Source: Methanobacteriota archaeon (GTDB lineage Archaea > Hydrothermarchaeota > Hydrothermarchaeia > Hydrothermarchaeales > SZUA-236). Taken from it: a stretch of DNA of 11,963 bases. This document shows positions 1-5,533 of this stretch, piece by piece. The stretch's first letter is position 1. Each line of letters starts with the position of its first letter. Location of the stretch: assembly GCA_003695745.1 (NCBI GenBank), contig RFHW01000145.1, positions 1-11,963 on the forward strand, given 5' to 3'. Below the pieces are notes generated by a model that made no database searches, was not told the DNA's origin, and saw only the letters and a program-made list of their open reading frames with translations. A program made the position numbers and the translations under genes.

Positions 1-60
1 CCCCCTTTTTATAAAGGGGGTCCCTTATCCGTCACACGGATAATATTAGCAAAGCTAATA
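1..60. repeat. Three perfect hairpins in tandem
   Basis: Three inverted repeats follow one another almost without spacing. The first, 1-20, pairs CCCCCTTT with AAAGGGGG around a 4-nt loop. The second, 25-43, pairs TTATCCGT with ACGGATAA around CAC. The third, 44-60, pairs TATTAGC with GCTAATA around AAA. All stems are perfect Watson-Crick, so the transcribed strand cannot be told. The first also contains a TATA-like TTTATAAA core. The window edge cuts off whatever lies upstream. Confidence 0.7.
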
Positions 61-71
61 AGACCCATCCT

Positions 72-102
72 AAACCCGATTCTCCCTCTCAGCCGAATCT
101 CC
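72..102. repeat. Dispersed hairpin motif, copy 1 (degenerate)
   Basis: Starts AAACCCGATTC and ends GAATCTCC, the two conserved edges of the motif family. The stem is reduced to 5 bp (GATTC 78-82 with GAATC 95-99) around a pyrimidine-rich loop. It is assigned by its edges and near-constant length to the same family as copies at 217, 382, 5322 and 5505. Confidence 0.55.
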
Positions 103-216
103 ATGCGATTGTAAAGAGCATGAGCCGGAGTGGAACGCACTTCGCCCACGGCAAATTCCAGATGGAAAGAAGGGGCAGAGCCTCCTGGGTTGTGGAAGAA
201 AGATCTGCTGCAAAAA

Positions 217-246
217 GAACCCGATTTCGGCGAAGCCGAAATCTCC
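217..246. repeat. Dispersed hairpin motif, copy 2 (perfect 9-bp stem)
   Basis: GATTTCGGC (223-231) pairs exactly with GCCGAAATC (235-243) around GAA. The motif is edged by ACCC upstream and TCC downstream. Compared with the copy at 5322, one stem pair changes from G-C to A-T on both sides, so pairing is kept. A T-rich run follows on both strands (TATTTTTC on plus; GGGTTCTTTTT on minus), so either strand could make a hairpin plus U-tract. Confidence 0.75.
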
Positions 247-315
247 AAATGTATTTTTCGACCACGTTTTTGCGGCAGTCAAATCCCTTGGGATGAAGAC
301 TGGCGGAAAAGGGTG

Positions 316-340
316 GAGGGTTCAAATCCCATCCTCGGCG
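316..340 (+). pseudogene. tRNA 3'-end-like fragment (T-arm plus acceptor, Ser-like)
   Basis: GAGGG-TTCAAAT-CCCAT (316-332) has the shape of a T-arm, with three good pairs, one A-A mismatch and one G-T wobble. It is followed by CCTCGGC and G, which would be the acceptor 3' strand and discriminator. From memory this ending resembles archaeal tRNA-Ser. The matching 5' acceptor strand GCCGAGG is absent from positions 1-315, and no CCA follows, so a complete tRNA is not present. It could be a relic left by an element that integrated at a tRNA gene, a degraded tRNA, or chance. The homologous site near 5425 is less tRNA-like. Confidence 0.35.
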
Positions 341-348
341 CTGCAATC

Positions 349-366
349 CACCTTTGTGTAAAGGTG
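349..366. repeat. Perfect 7-bp hairpin
   Basis: CACCTTT (349-355) pairs with AAAGGTG (360-366) around GTGT. It lies between the tRNA-like fragment and motif copy 3. Function unknown; strand cannot be assigned. Confidence 0.55.
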
Positions 367-381
367 TCTTGCTCACCCACC

Positions 382-411
382 AAACCCGATTTCGCCTTCG
401 ACAAATTCTCC
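382..411. repeat. Dispersed hairpin motif, copy 3 (degenerate)
   Basis: Starts AAACCCGATTTCG and ends AAATTCTCC. The stem is imperfect, with GATTT and AAATTC able to pair only with bulges. Its 3' edge CTCCGTTT (408-415) instead pairs perfectly with AAACGGAG (428-435). The following CTGGACGAAAACGGAGCGG resembles the CTGGCGGAAAAGGGTGG stretch at 299-315, so this copy may be a shortened version of unit A. Confidence 0.5.
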
Positions 412-494
412 GTTTGAGTCTGGACGAAAACGGAGCGGAGGTAGCACGCTAGGAGGTGGAACCTCCTGCGTAGTCGCTCGACACCGGTTTTTTT
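408..494 (+). ncRNA. Candidate structured RNA ending in a T7 tract
   Basis: Two hairpins stand in series. The first, 408-435, is a perfect 8-bp stem CTCCGTTT/AAACGGAG with a 12-nt loop. The second, 446-471, pairs ACGC-AGGAGGT with ACCTCCT-GCGT, 11 bp with one bulged T at 450 and a GGA loop. A run of seven Ts follows at 488-494, as expected for archaeal termination on the plus strand. I see no convincing TATA element at the right distance, and I cannot match the fold to a known RNA class. The hairpins may simply be terminator structure or mobile-element debris. Confidence 0.3.
488..494 (+). terminator. T7 tract
   Basis: Seven consecutive Ts on the plus strand, 17 nt after the 446-471 hairpin. 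Oligo-T on the non-template strand is the usual archaeal termination signal. It would act on plus-strand transcripts, not on rad50, which is read from the minus strand. Confidence 0.35.
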
Positions 495-496
495 AA

Positions 497-520
497 TCCA
501 ATCGCTGAAAGGCGGTTGGA
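497..520 (+). repeat. 10-bp hairpin with GAAA tetraloop
   Basis: TCCAATCGCT pairs with GGCGGTTGGA around GAAA, a GNRA tetraloop. Two of the ten pairs are T-G wobbles, which are stable only in RNA made from the plus strand (they become A-C mismatches on the other strand). This argues for a plus-strand transcript or for chance, not for a rad50 terminator. Confidence 0.5.
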
Positions 521-577
521 GCGGGGTGAGTGGCTTAGCGAAGGATGGGAGTGGGAATTTCCTCTGGTTCACTTCCT

Positions 578-2932
578 TTAGCTCACCACGCTCAGGCCGT
601 TCACTTTCTTCACTTCGATGATCCGGTCTGCCGATTCCTCGAACTCCTTGTCGTGGGTGACGACTATGGTCTGCGGTATGGTGGCCAGGCGTTTGATGAT
701 GTCCACAAGCTCTCTTCGGCGCTGGCTGTCGAGGTGGATGGTGGGCTCGTCGAGGATGATGAGCTCCATCACCGGTCCGCTGAGGGCCTTTGAGAGGCCG
801 ACGCGGAGTGCGAGGGCCGCTGCTATGCGCTCGCCGCCGCTGAGCATGTCGATGGACTCCTCGCCGTCTGGGCCGTGGACCTTGAGGCTGAAGTCCTCTG
901 TGAGGGTCACATCAGAATAGGGGAGGTTGAAGTGGAGGAAGACCTCCCGTGTGTACTCCTCGATAAGCGGTTTGGCCTCAAGGCGAAGCCTTTTTTGCAG
1001 CCTGTCCTTGTGGAAGATGTCCCGTATCTTTTCAAGAAGCCCTTTGAAGCGCAGCAGGTCTTTTCTCTCCCTGAGCAGGGCCTTTTTTCTGGCCATCTCT
1101 TCTTTTAGCTCGGAGATGCGCCTCTCCTTCTCCTCTGCCGATGACCTGAGGGCCGCCATCCTCTCCCTTAGGTCTGTGAGGGCGGACTGGATCCTCTTCT
1201 CCTCCCTTCGGGCATCTTCGATCTCTGCGTCTACGGAGCCGGCTGTCAGGCCGAGCTTGGCCGCCTCTTTATCTGCCTCTACTCTGAGGGTCTTCACCTT
1301 CTCCTCCAGACTGGCGGCCCTGGAGAGGAGCCCTTCCTTCTCGGGCAGGTTCTTTCGCAGGAAACCGAGGGCCTCCTTATATGTGTCCCTCACCTTCTCG
1401 AGGCTGGAAAGCCTCTTTTCAAGGGCCTGCATCTTCTCCAAGAGCGGCGGGAGCCCGGCAAGGGCTGAGCGGTCTTTCTTCAGCCTTTCGCTGAGCTCTG
1501 AGATCTTTTTCTCCCCCTCGGCCAGCCACCGCTCTCGGTCCCTTGCAGCCTCCACGTTTATCTTCCCAATGGAGCCCCTTCTCCCTTCAAGCTCCCTTGT
1601 CCTCCTCTTCCATCCTTCAAGCCTTTCTGCCGCGGCCTCAAGGGCCTTCTCAAGGGATGCGGCCTCGGAAGAATAGCTGCTCATGAGCTCTTTTCTATGC
1701 CTCTCTGTAAGCTCCCTCCCGCAGACCGGGCATGTGCCAGAGGCCTCCTCAAGCTCTGAGATGGCCTTTCTCAATGACTCAAGGGCGGCCTTCTTCTCAG
1801 CAGCCTCCCTCTGGGCCTTCTCAACCTCCTCCCTTGCCTCTGTGAGCAGCCTTTCAACCTCCTCTGCAGCAGATGTGGCGGCCTTCTCAAGCTCATCGAG
1901 CGTGGTGATGGGCTTCCCATGGACTTCTGCCGCGGCGGCAAAGACATGCTCAAGCTCCTTTCTCAGCGAGGCGAGCCTTTTCCTTTCATCTTCGATCTCC
2001 TTCTCTGTCTGCGCCGCCTGTTTCTTGAGGAGGTCATATCCATGGACCTTCTCCCTCAGCCCGGCGATCTCCTTTTCCAGGCGGCCGGCCTCCTTCGCCC
2101 CCTCCTCCGACGCCTTGAGCTCTTGCTCATAGGCCCTGATCCTTTCAAGACGGTCCCTAAGATGCTCAAGCTCAAGGGAGGCCCTCTTCAACCTCTCCAT
2201 CCTCTCCCTGATCCCTTCAATGGCCCTGATCCTCTGGCCCGCCTCCACCGCCTTCCTCTCCACCTCCTTCACCTCCCCCTCCATGGCTGAGAGCCTGGAG
2301 CGTATCTCCTTTACGGCCTCTCTCTCCCGTTCCATGGCCGCCTTTTTCTCCTCAAGCTCCTCTGGCACCCGTGAGAGCTCGTCAGCCTTCCTCTCAAAGG
2401 GCCTGATCACCTCAAGAAGGCCGCGGTAGGCCCTCTCCACATCCTCGGCGCCGATGAGCCTGCCTATATGCCTTTTTCGAGTTGAGGCGTCAGCTGCAAG
2501 AAGACTGTCAATCTCTCCCTGCTTGATATAGACGGCGCTTGTGAAGAGCTCGCCGTTCATCCCGAGGATGGACTCCACCTCGCCTGTGACCTCCCTCTCA
2601 CCCTTGGCAAGGAGCCTCTCCCCATCGCCTTCCAGGAGATAGAGATAGGATTCTGCCCCCCGTTTCACATCACGCCTTCGCCTGACCCGGTAGCCTCTTC
2701 CGTTGGAGTGAAAGGTCACTGACACCTCTCCCTCCGTCTTCCCCAGGGATATGAGCTCGTCCACGCCAACGCCGTCGGGCTTCTCCTTGAAGAGGGCGAA
2801 GCTCACGGCCTCAAGGATCGATGTCTTCCCGGCTCCGTTATCGCCTATGATTACGGTTGTGCCCTGCCCCAGGCTGAGCCTTGTGTCCCTGTGGCTCCTG
2901 AAATTCCTGAGGCGCACCTCATCGATAATCAT
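578..2932 (-). CDS. rad50: DNA double-strand break repair ATPase Rad50
   Basis: SMC-like ATPase that, with Mre11, tethers and processes DNA ends. Numbering from the ATG at 2932 (784 residues), the N-terminal lobe has Walker A GDNGAGKT (30-37) and a Q-loop in YIKQGEI. A long Lys/Glu-rich coiled coil runs to a zinc hook CPVC (Cys401, Cys404) almost at mid-protein, then returns to the C-terminal lobe with signature LSGGE (697), Walker B LIILDEP (Asp728, Glu729) and switch histidine in VTHD (760). It is somewhat shorter than Pyrococcus Rad50 (about 880), implying a shorter coil. The start is chosen because ATGA overlaps the mre11 stop, GGGG lies 7 nt upstream, and family members begin a few residues before the RLRNFRSH strand. 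A GTG at 2953 would add 7 residues. Confidence 0.96.
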   Translation of the reverse strand: MIIDEVRLRNFRSHRDTRLSLGQGTTVIIGDNGAGKTSILEAVSFALFKEKPDGVGVDELISLGKTEGEVSVTFHSNGRGYRVRRRRDVKRGAESYLYLLEGDGERLLAKGEREVTGEVESILGMNGELFTSAVYIKQGEIDSLLAADASTRKRHIGRLIGAEDVERAYRGLLEVIRPFERKADELSRVPEELEEKKAAMEREREAVKEIRSRLSAMEGEVKEVERKAVEAGQRIRAIEGIRERMERLKRASLELEHLRDRLERIRAYEQELKASEEGAKEAGRLEKEIAGLREKVHGYDLLKKQAAQTEKEIEDERKRLASLRKELEHVFAAAAEVHGKPITTLDELEKAATSAAEEVERLLTEAREEVEKAQREAAEKKAALESLRKAISELEEASGTCPVCGRELTERHRKELMSSYSSEAASLEKALEAAAERLEGWKRRTRELEGRRGSIGKINVEAARDRERWLAEGEKKISELSERLKKDRSALAGLPPLLEKMQALEKRLSSLEKVRDTYKEALGFLRKNLPEKEGLLSRAASLEEKVKTLRVEADKEAAKLGLTAGSVDAEIEDARREEKRIQSALTDLRERMAALRSSAEEKERRISELKEEMARKKALLRERKDLLRFKGLLEKIRDIFHKDRLQKRLRLEAKPLIEEYTREVFLHFNLPYSDVTLTEDFSLKVHGPDGEESIDMLSGGERIAAALALRVGLSKALSGPVMELIILDEPTIHLDSQRRRELVDIIKRLATIPQTIVVTHDKEFEESADRIIEVKKVNGLSVVS

Positions 2933-4047
2933 CTCAAAGCCCCTTCCTTCCACCGCCCATAGAAATCCTCCGCCAGACTGACGGCGCCATCGCCATCACC
3001 CCTTGAAAGACTCCTGAAGAGGTCGTAGGCAAAGGCCTTCTCAGCCTCGTCCAGCCCCTCGGCAGCATCGTAGATGAGCTCCCTTATGTCCAGGACAGGT
3101 GTTCTTGGACGGGCCTCCTCCACCTTGAAAAGACCTCTCTTCACAGCAAGATGGAGCGTCATCCCTGAGACCTCCCTTTTCAGCCTGTCATAGAGTACGC
3201 TGAAACCCTTCTCTGACTGGATGGTGACAGATGCAACAGGCCGTTTATGGCCAAGGCCTTCAAGAGCTTTTTTCAGCGCATCCACATCCTCCTCTGAGGC
3301 GACCTCGGTCCTCACGAAAGGACGGACACCGCCGAGGCTCATCCGACGCGGCTCCATGTCATCGGTATCAACAAGAAGGAACCCTTTGCCCTCTCTCTCC
3401 CAATCCCCGGCCTCCTCGATCCGCCATATCTCTGTGGACCCCGGATAACAGACCCGTGTACCCTTCACATCCTCCTCGATGCGGCTGTGCACATGCCCAA
3501 GGGCAAGGTAGTCAAACCCCATGGGGAGCTCGCCTGCAGAGAGCTCGTGTCCAAAGGGCAGATACCTGTCAACGCCCTGATGGAGCATGAGCAGACGCCT
3601 CTTATACTGTGCCGCCTCTTTTTCCAGGCCCGCCATGTTCTCAAGGAGCACGGCCCGATAGCTCCTGGGAAGATAGGGCACGCCGCCTATGAAGACATCG
3701 TCAACGACCACGCTGGGGTTCTCCATGGTAAGCACCGAAACACCGTCGAAGATGGCATGAGGCGCCATGCTACCACGGCGCATGATCATGTCATGGTTGC
3801 CCGGTATCATCACCACCCTGACACCCTTCTCAAGGAGGCGTTTGATCCCCTTCTTCGCCTCCACAAGGGCCCTGATAGGCGGCCGCGGCTCGTCAAAGAG
3901 GTCGCCAGAGTGCACCACAAGCTCCACGCCTTCGGTGATCATCAGCTCCACAGCCTCATGCCAGGCGCGGTAGAAATCCAGCTCCCTCTCCTCAAGATTG
4001 AACTGCCTGTAGCCGAGATGGGTGTCAGCGATGTGGGCGAAGAGCAT
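2929..4047 (-). CDS. mre11: DNA double-strand break repair nuclease Mre11
   Basis: Manganese-dependent exonuclease/endonuclease partner of Rad50. The phosphoesterase motifs are all present in order: ADTHLG (Asp8, His10), SGDLFD (Asp49), PGNHD (Asn84, His85, Asp86), MLHQG and GHVH. The C-terminal half would hold the capping domain and the Rad50-binding region. At 372 residues it is of ordinary length for archaea. It is the first gene of a two-gene minus-strand operon, its TGA overlapping the rad50 ATG. A TATA-like element lies about 30 nt upstream of the ATG, so the mRNA is probably leaderless. The herA and nurA genes often linked to it are not in this window. Confidence 0.96.
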   Translation of the reverse strand: MLFAHIADTHLGYRQFNLEERELDFYRAWHEAVELMITEGVELVVHSGDLFDEPRPPIRALVEAKKGIKRLLEKGVRVVMIPGNHDMIMRRGSMAPHAIFDGVSVLTMENPSVVVDDVFIGGVPYLPRSYRAVLLENMAGLEKEAAQYKRRLLMLHQGVDRYLPFGHELSAGELPMGFDYLALGHVHSRIEEDVKGTRVCYPGSTEIWRIEEAGDWEREGKGFLLVDTDDMEPRRMSLGGVRPFVRTEVASEEDVDALKKALEGLGHKRPVASVTIQSEKGFSVLYDRLKREVSGMTLHLAVKRGLFKVEEARPRTPVLDIRELIYDAAEGLDEAEKAFAYDLFRSLSRGDGDGAVSLAEDFYGRWKEGALR

Positions 4048-4055
4048 AAGTGTAA

Positions 4056-4065
4056 AACTGCAGTT
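4056..4065. promoter_or_regulatory. 10-bp palindrome between mre11 TATA and start
   Basis: AACTGCAGTT is a perfect palindrome between the TATA-like element and the ATG of mre11, over the expected initiation zone. A second short inverted repeat, GCATAA/TTATGC (4044-4049 and 4064-4069), surrounds it. The position suits a repressor site, but short palindromes arise by chance and no regulator is known here. Confidence 0.25.
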
Positions 4066-4070
4066 ATGCG

Positions 4071-4080
4071 TTAAAAATAT
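4071..4080 (-). promoter_or_regulatory. TATA-like promoter of mre11-rad50
   Basis: On the minus strand this reads ATATTTTTAA, 24-33 nt upstream of the mre11 ATG at 4047. That spacing puts initiation at or next to the start codon. No Shine-Dalgarno sequence precedes the ATG, consistent with a leaderless mRNA. Confidence 0.5.
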
Positions 4081-4100
4081 TCACATAAGGCGGGGGAAAT

Positions 4101-4110
4101 CTTTTTTATC
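4101..4110 (+). promoter_or_regulatory. TATA-like promoter of the glycosyltransferase gene
   Basis: CTTTTTTATC, preceded by a purine-rich GGGGGAAAT that could serve as BRE, lies 24-33 nt before the ATG at 4134. Initiation would fall at or close to the ATG. It is back-to-back with the mre11 promoter in an 86-nt divergent spacer. Confidence 0.5.
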
Positions 4111-4133
4111 CCTCCACAGACAGAATCGTCTCC

Positions 4134-5132
4134 ATGGACATCTCGGTCATCGTGCCCACCCTCAACGAGGAGGAGAACATAGAGGCATGCCTCGCATCCA
4201 TATACTCACAGGAAACAGACCTTGAATATGAGGTCATCGTGAGCGACGGGGGGAGCGAGGACCGGACGGTGGAGCTGGCAAGGAACTTCACAGACCTCAT
4301 CGTGGTCTCAGACCGCCGGGGCACAGGGATACAGCGCAATGAAGGCGCAACGCTTGCATCGGCCGACCACCTCCTCTTCCTGGACGCCGACACCCTCCTC
4401 CTCTCTGACTACCTGGAAAGGGCGCACAGAAAGTTCGTGGAGGACCCCGGGCTCCTGGCCTTCAGCGGGAGCTTCATCTTCCCAAACCGCACGCCCAAGC
4501 TCATCTTCACAGAGAAGGTGATGAACAGCTATTTCCGCGCCAGAAGCAGGCTGGGAAGAGCGACCCTCCCAGGATTCAACATCAACATCAGAAAAGAGGT
4601 CTTTGAAAGGATCGGAGGTTTCAGGGACGTCCCCCTTGAGGACATCGAGCTCTCCATCAAACTGAGAGATGCCGGCACGATCAGATACTTCCCGGACCTC
4701 TATGTAATCACCTCGTCGCGAAGACTCGAGAAGATGGGGCTTCTTGGCTCCATCAGATACTACATCGAGATGGATCTGGCCCGGAGGGAGCCCTTCTTCA
4801 GAGACGCCCTCCTCTACGGCGGCTACTTCTCCTGCAGGGTCAAAGGCTCAGACATCCAGCAGATCTTTGAAAAGGCCTTCACAGACATAGAGAGAGAAAG
4901 ACACCTGGATTTCTCTGTAAAAGAATACATCAAGCAAAAGCTGGACCTCCTCCCCGAGATAAAAAGCATCTCACCAACAGGCCTCCTCAAAGACACCCTC
5001 GCCACATCCACATCCATAGCAGACATCGGCTTCAGAGAAAGGATAGAGAGGATCGACGCAGACAGGGCGGTGGCCATGATCAAGGAAAAGATCAGGGCGC
5101 TCAAAGAAAAAACCCAGATCAAAAACCGATAG
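4134..5132 (+). CDS. Family 2 (GT-A) glycosyltransferase
   Basis: Probably transfers a sugar from a nucleotide-sugar or dolichyl-phosphate sugar to an unknown acceptor. The GT-A fold motifs are clear: IVPTLNEEENI (6-16) for nucleotide binding, VSDGGSEDRT (36-45), the metal-binding DxD as DAD (84-86), and a downstream LEDIELSIKLRDAG (168-181) whose acidic pair suits the catalytic base region. The conserved GT domain ends near residue 235. The last 100 residues are charged, mostly helical and unfamiliar to me, with no transmembrane segment. The protein therefore looks cytosolic or peripherally membrane-bound. It is a single-gene unit facing away from mre11 and followed by tRNA-Glu; context does not reveal the substrate. 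Confidence 0.88.
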   Translation: MDISVIVPTLNEEENIEACLASIYSQETDLEYEVIVSDGGSEDRTVELARNFTDLIVVSDRRGTGIQRNEGATLASADHLLFLDADTLLLSDYLERAHRKFVEDPGLLAFSGSFIFPNRTPKLIFTEKVMNSYFRARSRLGRATLPGFNINIRKEVFERIGGFRDVPLEDIELSIKLRDAGTIRYFPDLYVITSSRRLEKMGLLGSIRYYIEMDLARREPFFRDALLYGGYFSCRVKGSDIQQIFEKAFTDIERERHLDFSVKEYIKQKLDLLPEIKSISPTGLLKDTLATSTSIADIGFRERIERIDADRAVAMIKEKIRALKEKTQIKNR

Positions 5133-5156
5133 AAAAGAGAGGCCACGCCACCCTCG

Positions 5157-5170
5157 TTAAATATAAATAA
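5157..5170 (+). promoter_or_regulatory. TATA box of tRNA-Glu
   Basis: TTAAATATAAATAA is a strong AT-rich box A element 34-47 nt before the mature tRNA 5' end. Initiation about 25 nt downstream would leave a short 5' leader for RNase P to remove. Confidence 0.7.
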
Positions 5171-5203
5171 GACCCAGCCAAGCCACAAACCACCTTACTT
5201 CGG

Positions 5204-5278
5204 GCTCCGGTAGTGTAGCACGGCCAATCATATCGGACTTTCAATCCGATGACTCGGGTTCAAATCCCGACCGGAGCA
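5204..5278 (+). tRNA. tRNA-Glu (anticodon UUC)
   Basis: The 75-nt sequence folds as a full cloverleaf. The acceptor GCTCCGG pairs perfectly with CCGGAGC (5271-5277) and A is the discriminator. The D-arm starts GTGT with three pairs, as usual for Glu. The anticodon stem TCGGA/TCCGA holds loop CTTTCAA, with TTC at 5240-5242. The T-arm is TCGGG-TTCAAAT-CCCGA, perfectly paired. CCA is not encoded, and no intron is present. It has its own TATA box and a T-rich tract just downstream, so it is an independent unit. Confidence 0.97.
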
Positions 5279-5284
5279 CTGCAC

Positions 5285-5295
5285 TTTTTCTTTTA
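5285..5295 (+). terminator. T-rich terminator of tRNA-Glu
   Basis: TTTTTCTTTTA begins 7 nt after the discriminator base. Oligo-T directly after a tRNA gene is the usual archaeal stop signal. Confidence 0.65.
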
Positions 5296-5310
5296 TGGAA
5301 AAGAAAACCT

Positions 5311-5445
5311 GCGCTAAAAGAAAACCCGATTTCAGCCGAAGCTGAAATCTCCAACATATATTTTTCCGGCCGCGCTTTTGCCGAAGCTGCAGCGAATAAG
5401 CGCACAGCGAGGTAAAAGGGCGGAGGCTTCAAGCTCCCAGATGGA
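5311..5445. repeat. Long dispersed repeat unit B, homologous to 211-340
   Basis: Same order of parts as unit A: A-rich lead-in, ACCCGATTTC hairpin (5328-5349), AT-rich run TATATTTTTCC, a GC-rich block leading to CTTTTGCCG, a diverged middle, and AAAAGGGCGGAGGCTTCAAG (5415-5434). A GAAGACTGG word occurs just after this unit (5451-5459) but before the GGAGG block in unit A (293-301), hinting at rearrangement. It starts 33 nt beyond the tRNA-Glu 3' end. Confidence 0.6.
5322..5352. repeat. Dispersed hairpin motif, copy 4 (perfect 9-bp stem, UUCG loop on minus)
   Basis: GATTTCAGC (5328-5336) pairs exactly with GCTGAAATC (5341-5349). Read from the minus strand the loop is TTCG closed by C-G, the very stable cUUCGg tetraloop, and the sequence continues GGGTTTTCTTTT, a U-rich tail. 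On the minus strand it therefore has intrinsic-terminator form. Confidence 0.75.
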
Positions 5446-5504
5446 GCGCCGAAGACTGGAAAAAGGTGGATCGCTCGAGACACGATTAATCTGTCCCCCA
5501 AAGA

Positions 5505-5533
5505 AAACCGATTCTCCCCTTTGGTCGGTCTCC
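5505..5533. repeat. Dispersed hairpin motif, copy 5 (degenerate)
   Basis: Starts AAACCGATTC and ends GGTCTCC, with near-constant length. A 5-bp stem ACCGA (5507-5511)/TCGGT (5525-5529) competes with CCAAAG (5498-5503)/CTTTGG (5519-5524). Membership of the family is the least certain of the five. Confidence 0.4.

What the first reader, a model, noticed from the sequence alone, without database searches (positions are those of the whole stretch)
72..5533. Dispersed hairpin-motif family restricted to the two gene-free regions
Five same-orientation copies (72-102, 217-246, 382-411, 5322-5352, 5505-5533) share an ACCCGATTY start and a TCTCC end at near-constant spacing of 29-31 bp. None falls inside a gene. 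I do not recognise the family. It could be a non-autonomous mobile element, a structured RNA family, or transcription-boundary elements.
Basis: partly seen in the sequence, partly recalled or inferred. Interest (0 to 1): 0.7.

Follow-up and report, generated by a model that had tools for sequence, protein, structure and literature searches.

The report
Triple-helix elements behind archaeal tRNA genes
The five small hairpins are parts of an apparently undescribed family of folded DNA or RNA elements that sit mostly right behind tRNA genes in one group of archaea and whose sequences change in step as a three-stranded helix would require.

Summary
The repeat is real. Its motif has 17 matches in the 1.28 Mb genome, against 1 for the reversed pattern. 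It is the distal hairpin of a ~70-nt module ("A") that starts at tRNA 3' ends. Copy 4 directly follows tRNA-Glu (5204-5279); copy 3 follows a 23-nt tRNA 3' fragment (318-340). A covariance model finds A in 7 of 20 genomes of the order. In the three genomes of this family, 45 of 86 hits start within 20 nt of a tRNA 3' end.

On the strand antisense to the tRNA, a third pyrimidine tract matches A's second hairpin as a canonical triple helix (T·A-T, C·G-C) at 290 of 292 positions in 40 parsed copies. Wobble pairs and fold energies point to the same strand. The distal module B has a similar plan on the opposite strand, so the folds face outward.

Units are exchanged between orthologous tRNA loci, and tRNA 3' fragments separate units. 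I favour small tRNA-3'-end-targeted mobile cassettes with folded ends (0.42). RNA boundary elements are a strong rival (0.33). No candidate enzyme was found in this genome. I found no match in Rfam and no report in the papers searched.

The parts
1..102 (-). Module A, copy 1, cut by the contig start; holds an insert of two small hairpins (about 23-65); hairpin 2 at 74-102
   Evidence: not hit by the covariance model at E 0.1
173..246 (-). Module A, copy 2; hairpin 2 at 219-246; the proximal part is irregular
254..316 (+). Module B (third tract TTTTTCG, purine arm AAAAGGG)
318..340 (+). 23-nt fragment equal to the 3' end of the tRNA gene at G000:C108:207-351
341..411 (-). Module A, copy 3; hairpin 2 at 384-411 (imperfect)
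432..472 (.). Module D (tRNA-like D-arm and anticodon-arm look, by eye)
473..486 (-). Right half of module E (GTCGCTCGACACCG)
498..519 (.). Module C hairpin (CCAATCGC..GCGGTTGG)
5204..5279 (+). tRNA-Glu (TTC), the host tRNA gene of copy 4
5280..5352 (-). Module A, copy 4, complete; hairpin 2 at 5324-5352; third tract TTTTCTTTT pairs with AAAAGAAAA
   Evidence: 65.4 bits
5361..5423 (+). Module B (third tract TTTTTCCGG, purine arm AAAAGGG)
5501..5533 (-). Copy 5: degenerate hairpin 2 with a purine tract, no proximal hairpin
   Evidence: not hit

Best explanation
[quoted passage not shown] SHOWN by sequence: the tRNA-side end (module A, or alternatively E) folds on the strand antisense to the tRNA. 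In A that strand has a hairpin and a third pyrimidine tract that matches the second hairpin, position by position, as a parallel T.A-T / C.G-C triple helix. The distal end (module B) has a similar plan on the opposite strand, so the two folds face outward. Fragments of 17-28 nt of tRNA 3' ends stand between successive units. Orthologous tRNA genes can carry different units. INFERRED: the triple helix really forms. INFERRED: these are small non-autonomous mobile or exchangeable cassettes; the folded end part of each strand, as single-stranded DNA or as RNA before copying, is what an enzyme recognises; and the tRNA 3' end is the docking site, partly duplicated on insertion. The enzyme is unknown.
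For: Motif 17 matches vs 1 reversed. 45 of 86 model hits in three genomes start within 20 nt of a tRNA 3' end. Hairpin covariation: 13 of 13 pairs changed on both sides. Mirror tract in 26 of 35 informative copies, direct in 0, at most 20 in 20,000 swaps. 290 of 292 triplet positions, 33 of them C.G; swap maximum 242 against 286. Strand bias: hairpin mispairs A.C 19 vs G.T 3 seen from the tRNA strand; E antisense 15 of 15, B sense 30 of 32; E of G007 antisense 12 of 12. Third strand of B follows its purine arm in 34 of 36 strings. Exchange: two tRNA genes identical between G001 and G002 carry A in one and E in the other; orthologous A copies are hardly more alike (0.749) than any G001-G002 pair (0.727). 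tRNA 3' fragments between units.
Against: No TnpB or Y1 transposase in 6 of 6 genomes; phage integrase absent from G000, G001 and G007, present in G002, G008 and G013; reverse transcriptase and other transposases were not searched. In G001:C147 and G002:C167 the fragment comes from another tRNA than the one in front, which a simple target duplication does not predict. In 4 of 11 ortholog pairs the ortholog is the closest copy, so part is inherited in place. No filled/empty site pair inside one species was available. The triple helix itself was not measured; a purine-motif triplex on the tRNA strand would give the same mirror rule.
Confidence: 0.42

Rival explanations
1. RNA boundary elements. 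The folds act in transcripts: A or E at the end of RNAs that run toward the tRNA gene, B at the end of RNAs that run away from it. They stop transcription at U tracts or cap the 3' end with a triple helix against exonucleases, and so insulate tRNA genes.
For: The far fold is the active one in each direction. A and B hold U tracts after a hairpin. Nine tRNA genes in three orthologous operon settings carry no unit (by reading the flanks). Near protein genes, A lies on the mRNA strand just after a stop codon (L334) or just before a start codon (L338, L346).
Against: E has no U tract. In all three family genomes A stands between a tRNA-Leu and a close co-directional gene. It does not explain the tRNA fragments or the exchange of A for E. 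No conserved antisense promoter was established; I only looked by eye. Downstream genes lie on both strands.
Confidence: 0.33
2. Passive spread by ectopic recombination or gene conversion between tRNA loci, which share T-arm sequence, without any function or enzyme.
For: tRNA 3' ends share sequence, units are exchanged, and arrays are mosaic.
Against: Compensatory change in three strands and the strand bias need selection on the fold. The shared homology is only about 17-28 nt.
Confidence: 0.07
3. Trans-acting or cis-regulatory RNAs with a 3' tail antisense to tRNA 3' ends, or riboswitch-like leaders.
For: A is followed on its own strand by antisense tRNA sequence. In L338 and L346 A plus GGGTGACAA abuts an ATG.
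Against: Only two leader cases were seen. The conserved structure of A lies outside the tRNA part. No transcript data.
Confidence: 0.1

Closest known systems
REP palindromes and RAYT transposases (PMC3733652, passages seen)
   Same: Many small intergenic hairpins per genome, strand-specific fold, G.T pairs on one strand, no gene of their own
   Different: Docked at tRNA 3' ends, larger modules, third-strand covariation; no Y1 transposase found in six genomes
Integrase elements in archaeal tRNA genes (PMC8371274, passages seen)
   Same: tRNA 3' end as the site; a tRNA 3' fragment on the far side
   Different: Units of roughly 70-300 nt without genes; folded ends; no phage integrase found in G000 or G001
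ENE-type RNA triple helices such as MALAT1 or PAN (recalled; only listings seen)
   Same: U.A-U and C.G-C major-groove triple helix near an RNA 3' end
   Different: Here the third strand lies 5' of its own hairpin in the same ~70-nt module; archaeal, many copies, tRNA-linked
BOX-type modular repeats of pneumococci (recalled, no call)
   Same: Mosaic of interchangeable small modules between genes
   Different: tRNA docking and outward folds

Membership tests
REP / RAYT elements | Y1 tyrosine transposase in the genome | tested here: not met
   PF01797: 0 of 6 genomes, 5 of 14 controls ring; the genomes are drafts
REP / RAYT elements | GTAG or CGTC tag beside the hairpin | not tested
   no count made
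IS605/TnpB with guide RNA | TnpB protein | tested here: not met
   PF07282: 0 of 6 genomes, 6 of 14 controls ring
tRNA-integrated tyrosine-recombinase element | tRNA 3' fragment repeated at the far border | tested here: inconclusive
   Present in several arrays, but in two of them from another tRNA
tRNA-integrated tyrosine-recombinase element | Integrase gene | tested here: not met
   PF00589: none in G000, G001, G007; hits in G002, G008, G013
MITE | Terminal inverted repeats in sequence | not tested
   The two ends share a fold plan; sequence inversion was not measured
Known RNA family (Rfam 15) | Match at gathering score | tested here: not met
   Only tRNA, SRP RNA and RNase P RNA matched in the stretches given
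Nucleic-acid triple helix | Third strand covaries with the Watson-Crick hairpin | tested here: met
   B
Nucleic-acid triple helix | Physical third-strand contact | not testable with these tools
   needs probing or melting
CRISPR array | Near-identical repeats at regular spacing | tested here: not met
   Starts 145, 165 and about 180 nt apart, copies differ
Intrinsic terminator | U tract after a hairpin on the folded strand | tested here: inconclusive
   A and B yes, E no; termination not measured

The most novel reading that the evidence does not exclude
A new kind of genetic element: gene-free cassettes that live mainly behind tRNA and tRNA-like 3' ends. Each outward end is built as a hairpin plus an intramolecular pyrimidine triple helix that is the recognition structure for movement, and a tRNA-like module (D) offers new docking sites so that cassettes stack into arrays.
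Probability: 0.37. Interest if true: 0.88.

Novelty: categorically new. Interest (0 to 1): 0.76.

Why it matters
Natural nucleic-acid triple helices are known mostly one by one. Here a family with tens of copies per genome gives position-by-position evolutionary evidence for one, including C.G-C triplets and a switch to G next to terminal G-C pairs. It also shows exchangeable folded elements at tRNA 3' ends in five families of one archaeal order, so the question of what guards or colonises tRNA flanks becomes directly testable.

Tried and rejected
Set aside:
(1) CRISPR or tandem array: irregular spacing, different modules.
(2) A known RNA family: no Rfam match beyond tRNA, SRP and RNase P RNA.
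(3) Plain tRNA terminators on the tRNA strand: the pyrimidine arm is often CCCCTTT or CTTTCTT, and the fold evidence is for the other strand.
(4) Direct instead of mirror repeat: 0 of 35.
(5) Terminators of convergent genes only: the next ORFs lie on both strands.
(6) TnpB guide RNA and RAYT.
(7) Exact-pattern scans of viral contigs and genome contigs: 0 stretches; they may leave out near genomes.
(8) Naming the organism by TsaD: 17 loci, the archaeal ones 50-61% identical with mixed labels; no name is given.
(9) A hairpin wobble tally over whole arrays: A.C 55, G.T 22 at 7 or more Watson-Crick pairs; the control flank gave 9 and 6 at that setting (24 and 38 at 6 or more), so I rest on hairpin 2, E and B apart.

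Limits. One search parsed 50 copies; 9 of 35 informative ones failed the mirror test, which I put down mainly to inserts that misled the parser, but I did not recount them. One search includes one misparsed hairpin (4 A.C, 1 G.T); without it 15 and 2. One search uses a strict pattern that already demands a purine tract, so the informative part is where C stands among T, and the swap control; it used 40 of 41 parsed copies (C77:4296 dropped as false). Alignment A1 used 38 of 41: besides C77:4296, C51:7761 and G001:C97:2797 were left out without a reason. In one search hairpin 2 without flanks is less one-sided (29 antisense, 10 sense of 39). B strings overlap or are near-identical in part. Copies are related; no tree correction was made. 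In one search at most 150 candidates per genome were scored, so absences are soft. ORFs and classes are mechanical and contain errors. Modules D, C and the tandem G.A motif were judged by eye.

Literature: 8 searches answered (listings and abstracts seen) and passages of PMC2864571, PMC8371274 and PMC3733652. No whole paper was read.
Full report
WHERE IT IS. The window is contig C180 of a 1.28 Mb archaeal draft genome (197 contigs, about 90% complete). Its proteins include Rad50, Mre11-like, Rpb7/RpoE-like and TsaD homologues. The two gene-free stretches hold the five reported copies; four are exact and the fifth is degenerate.

MORE THAN CHANCE. The pattern has 17 matches in the genome against 1 for the reversed pattern. 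A stretch around copies 2 and 3 gives 16 matches in the genome, itself included, in pieces. The family is modular.

BEHIND tRNA GENES. tRNA searches and the printed flanks show that the hairpin is the distal part of a ~70-nt module, A, that begins at the tRNA 3' end. In the window, copy 4 follows tRNA-Glu directly. Copy 3 follows a 23-nt fragment (318-340) equal to the 3' end of a tRNA in contig C108. Two more genomes of the family, G001 and G002, show A or an alternative module E (TTGTCACCCTC...GCTCGACACC) behind many tRNA genes. A rough mechanical classing put A and/or E behind 67 of 94 tRNA genes with enough flank in the three genomes, with some false calls.

A covariance model from 38 copies finds A in 7 of 20 genomes of the order, from five families: 19, 31 and 36 hits in the family's genomes, 6 in G008, 4 in G007, 2 in G011 and 2 in G005 (one of them, 21.3 bits, doubtful). 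The other 13, ten of them of family f2, gave none; at most 150 candidates per genome were scored. Of the 86 hits in the three family genomes, 45 begin within 20 nt of a listed tRNA 3' end, 17 within 400 nt, and 24 do not. I fetched 13 of these 24. One has an intron-containing tRNA in front by Rfam and one by eye, two a tRNA-like fragment, one starts at a contig end, three abut protein ORFs, and five stayed unresolved.

In G007 all four A hits follow tRNA-Leu genes. E-type hairpins directly follow 12 of 31 tRNA genes in G007 and 7 of 26 in G008. The E pattern has 13 matches in G007 against 0 reversed, 11 of them within 60 nt behind a tRNA gene. In G013 (family f2) I saw neither A nor E behind the 31 of 47 tRNA genes whose flanks I printed.

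THE FOLD. Read on the strand antisense to the tRNA, A is GGAG, hairpin 2, a G-rich joint, a pyrimidine tract Y3, a short linker, then hairpin Y2-loop-R1 ending at the tRNA. The two hairpins covary: 13 of 13 pairs have two-sided changes and 92.2% of cells are paired; no shuffle of 500 reaches either value. Y3 is the mirror image of Y2, hence parallel to R1. In a loose parse, 26 of 35 informative copies have the exact mirror tract and none a direct one; 20,000 swaps between copies reach at most 20. In 40 strictly parsed copies, 290 of 292 positions are T.A or C.G triplets, 33 of them C.G. The score is 286, against at most 242 in 500 swaps and 242 for the antiparallel reading of the same copies. 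Where the hairpin ends in G-C pairs the third strand goes on with G instead of C, as the known difficulty of neighbouring protonated C would favour (general knowledge). The covariation is shown; the triple helix is inferred from it.

WHICH STRAND. In 32 parsed hairpins, mispairs seen from the tRNA strand are A.C 19 times and G.T 3 times (15 and 2 without one misparse), that is G.T on the antisense strand. tRNA acceptor stems as control give 20 G.T and 1 A.C on their own strand. Hairpin 2 with flanks folds better antisense in 33 and sense in 2 of 40; without flanks 29 and 10 of 39; E antisense in 15 of 15; B sense in 30 of 32; whole tRNAs sense in 72 of 98. E-type of G007 is antisense in 12 of 12, of G008 in 6 of 7. 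RNA and single-stranded DNA are not separated by these data.

TWO OUTWARD ENDS. B has a pyrimidine tract and a TTTTT:AAAAA stem. Its third strand follows the purine arm: GGG with CCG 13 times, GG with CG 12, GG with GG or GC 9, and 2 others, of 36 strings that are partly near-identical. The tRNA-side fold and the distal fold thus point outward on opposite strands.

EXCHANGE AND ARRAYS. Two tRNA genes that are identical between G001 and G002 carry A in one and E in the other; the window's tRNA-Glu (A) and its G002 partner (E) are a third case at 97%. Among 11 ortholog pairs with A in both, the ortholog is the closest copy in 4; mean identity is 0.749 against 0.727 for all G001 x G002 pairs. At one site G002 keeps only a remnant of the unit found in G001. 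Arrays hold several units separated by tRNA 3' fragments, often behind a tRNA-like module D. In contig C65 the last 28 nt of tRNA-Lys recur about 285 nt downstream. In G001:C147 and G002:C167 the fragment belongs to another tRNA than the one in front.

MECHANISM. I judge a docking, exchangeable cassette most likely (0.42): outward folds on opposite strands, fragments of the docking site between units, and turnover at orthologous sites. Against it, no TnpB or Y1 transposase was found in six genomes and no phage integrase in G000, G001 or G007, and reverse transcriptases were not searched. A boundary RNA (0.33) would explain why nine operonic tRNA genes lack units, but not the fragments, nor the A that stands between tRNA-Leu and a close co-directional gene in all three genomes. 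Both readings share the structural finding, which I hold at about 0.9.

COMPARISON. It works partly like REP/RAYT hairpins and partly like integrase elements at tRNA genes, and its fold recalls ENE triple helices. A defining feature of each was not met or could not be tested (see the membership table). Eight literature searches and passages of three papers gave no report of it.

Noticed in passing
L338 (G002:C99:846-914) and L346 (G001:C120:6145-6217): Module A followed by GGGTGACAA stands directly in front of an ATG of a protein ORF on the folded strand, like a leader with a ribosome-binding site.
   Followed up: partly
L334 (G001:C127:2236-2306): Module A starts 7 nt after the stop codon of a protein ORF on the folded strand.
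   Followed up: partly
G013, behind tRNA genes at C2:515126, C13:4988, C14:20206, C8:94783: Another repeat (AGGGGAGGGGAATACCCCTCCCC...GACAGGGATA-like) follows four tRNA genes of a family without A or E.
   Followed up: no
L189 (G011) and G008:C124 flank: On the tRNA strand TTTTCTTTTCCCCGGGGTTTTCTTTTTTTAAAAGAAAA-like sequence follows module A, a possible B counterpart with an inner C.G-C triplet.
   Followed up: no
G001:C99:21829-21913 flank: The loop of the first hairpin reads ACAC on the tRNA strand instead of GTGT, as if that hairpin were inverted.
   Followed up: no
Hairpin 2 of G000 copies (e.g. window 74-102) and E of G007: On the antisense strand both show a stem interrupted by GA opposite GA (by eye), a motif common in folded RNA.
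   Followed up: no
G000 C108, C127, C180, C196, C124, C69: Contigs often end inside or next to these arrays, so copy numbers are likely lower bounds.
   Followed up: no
G000:C51:7761-7891, G002:C44, G001:C44: tRNA genes with long introns were missed by ARAGORN or by the genome-wide tRNA search and found by Rfam or by eye.
   Followed up: partly
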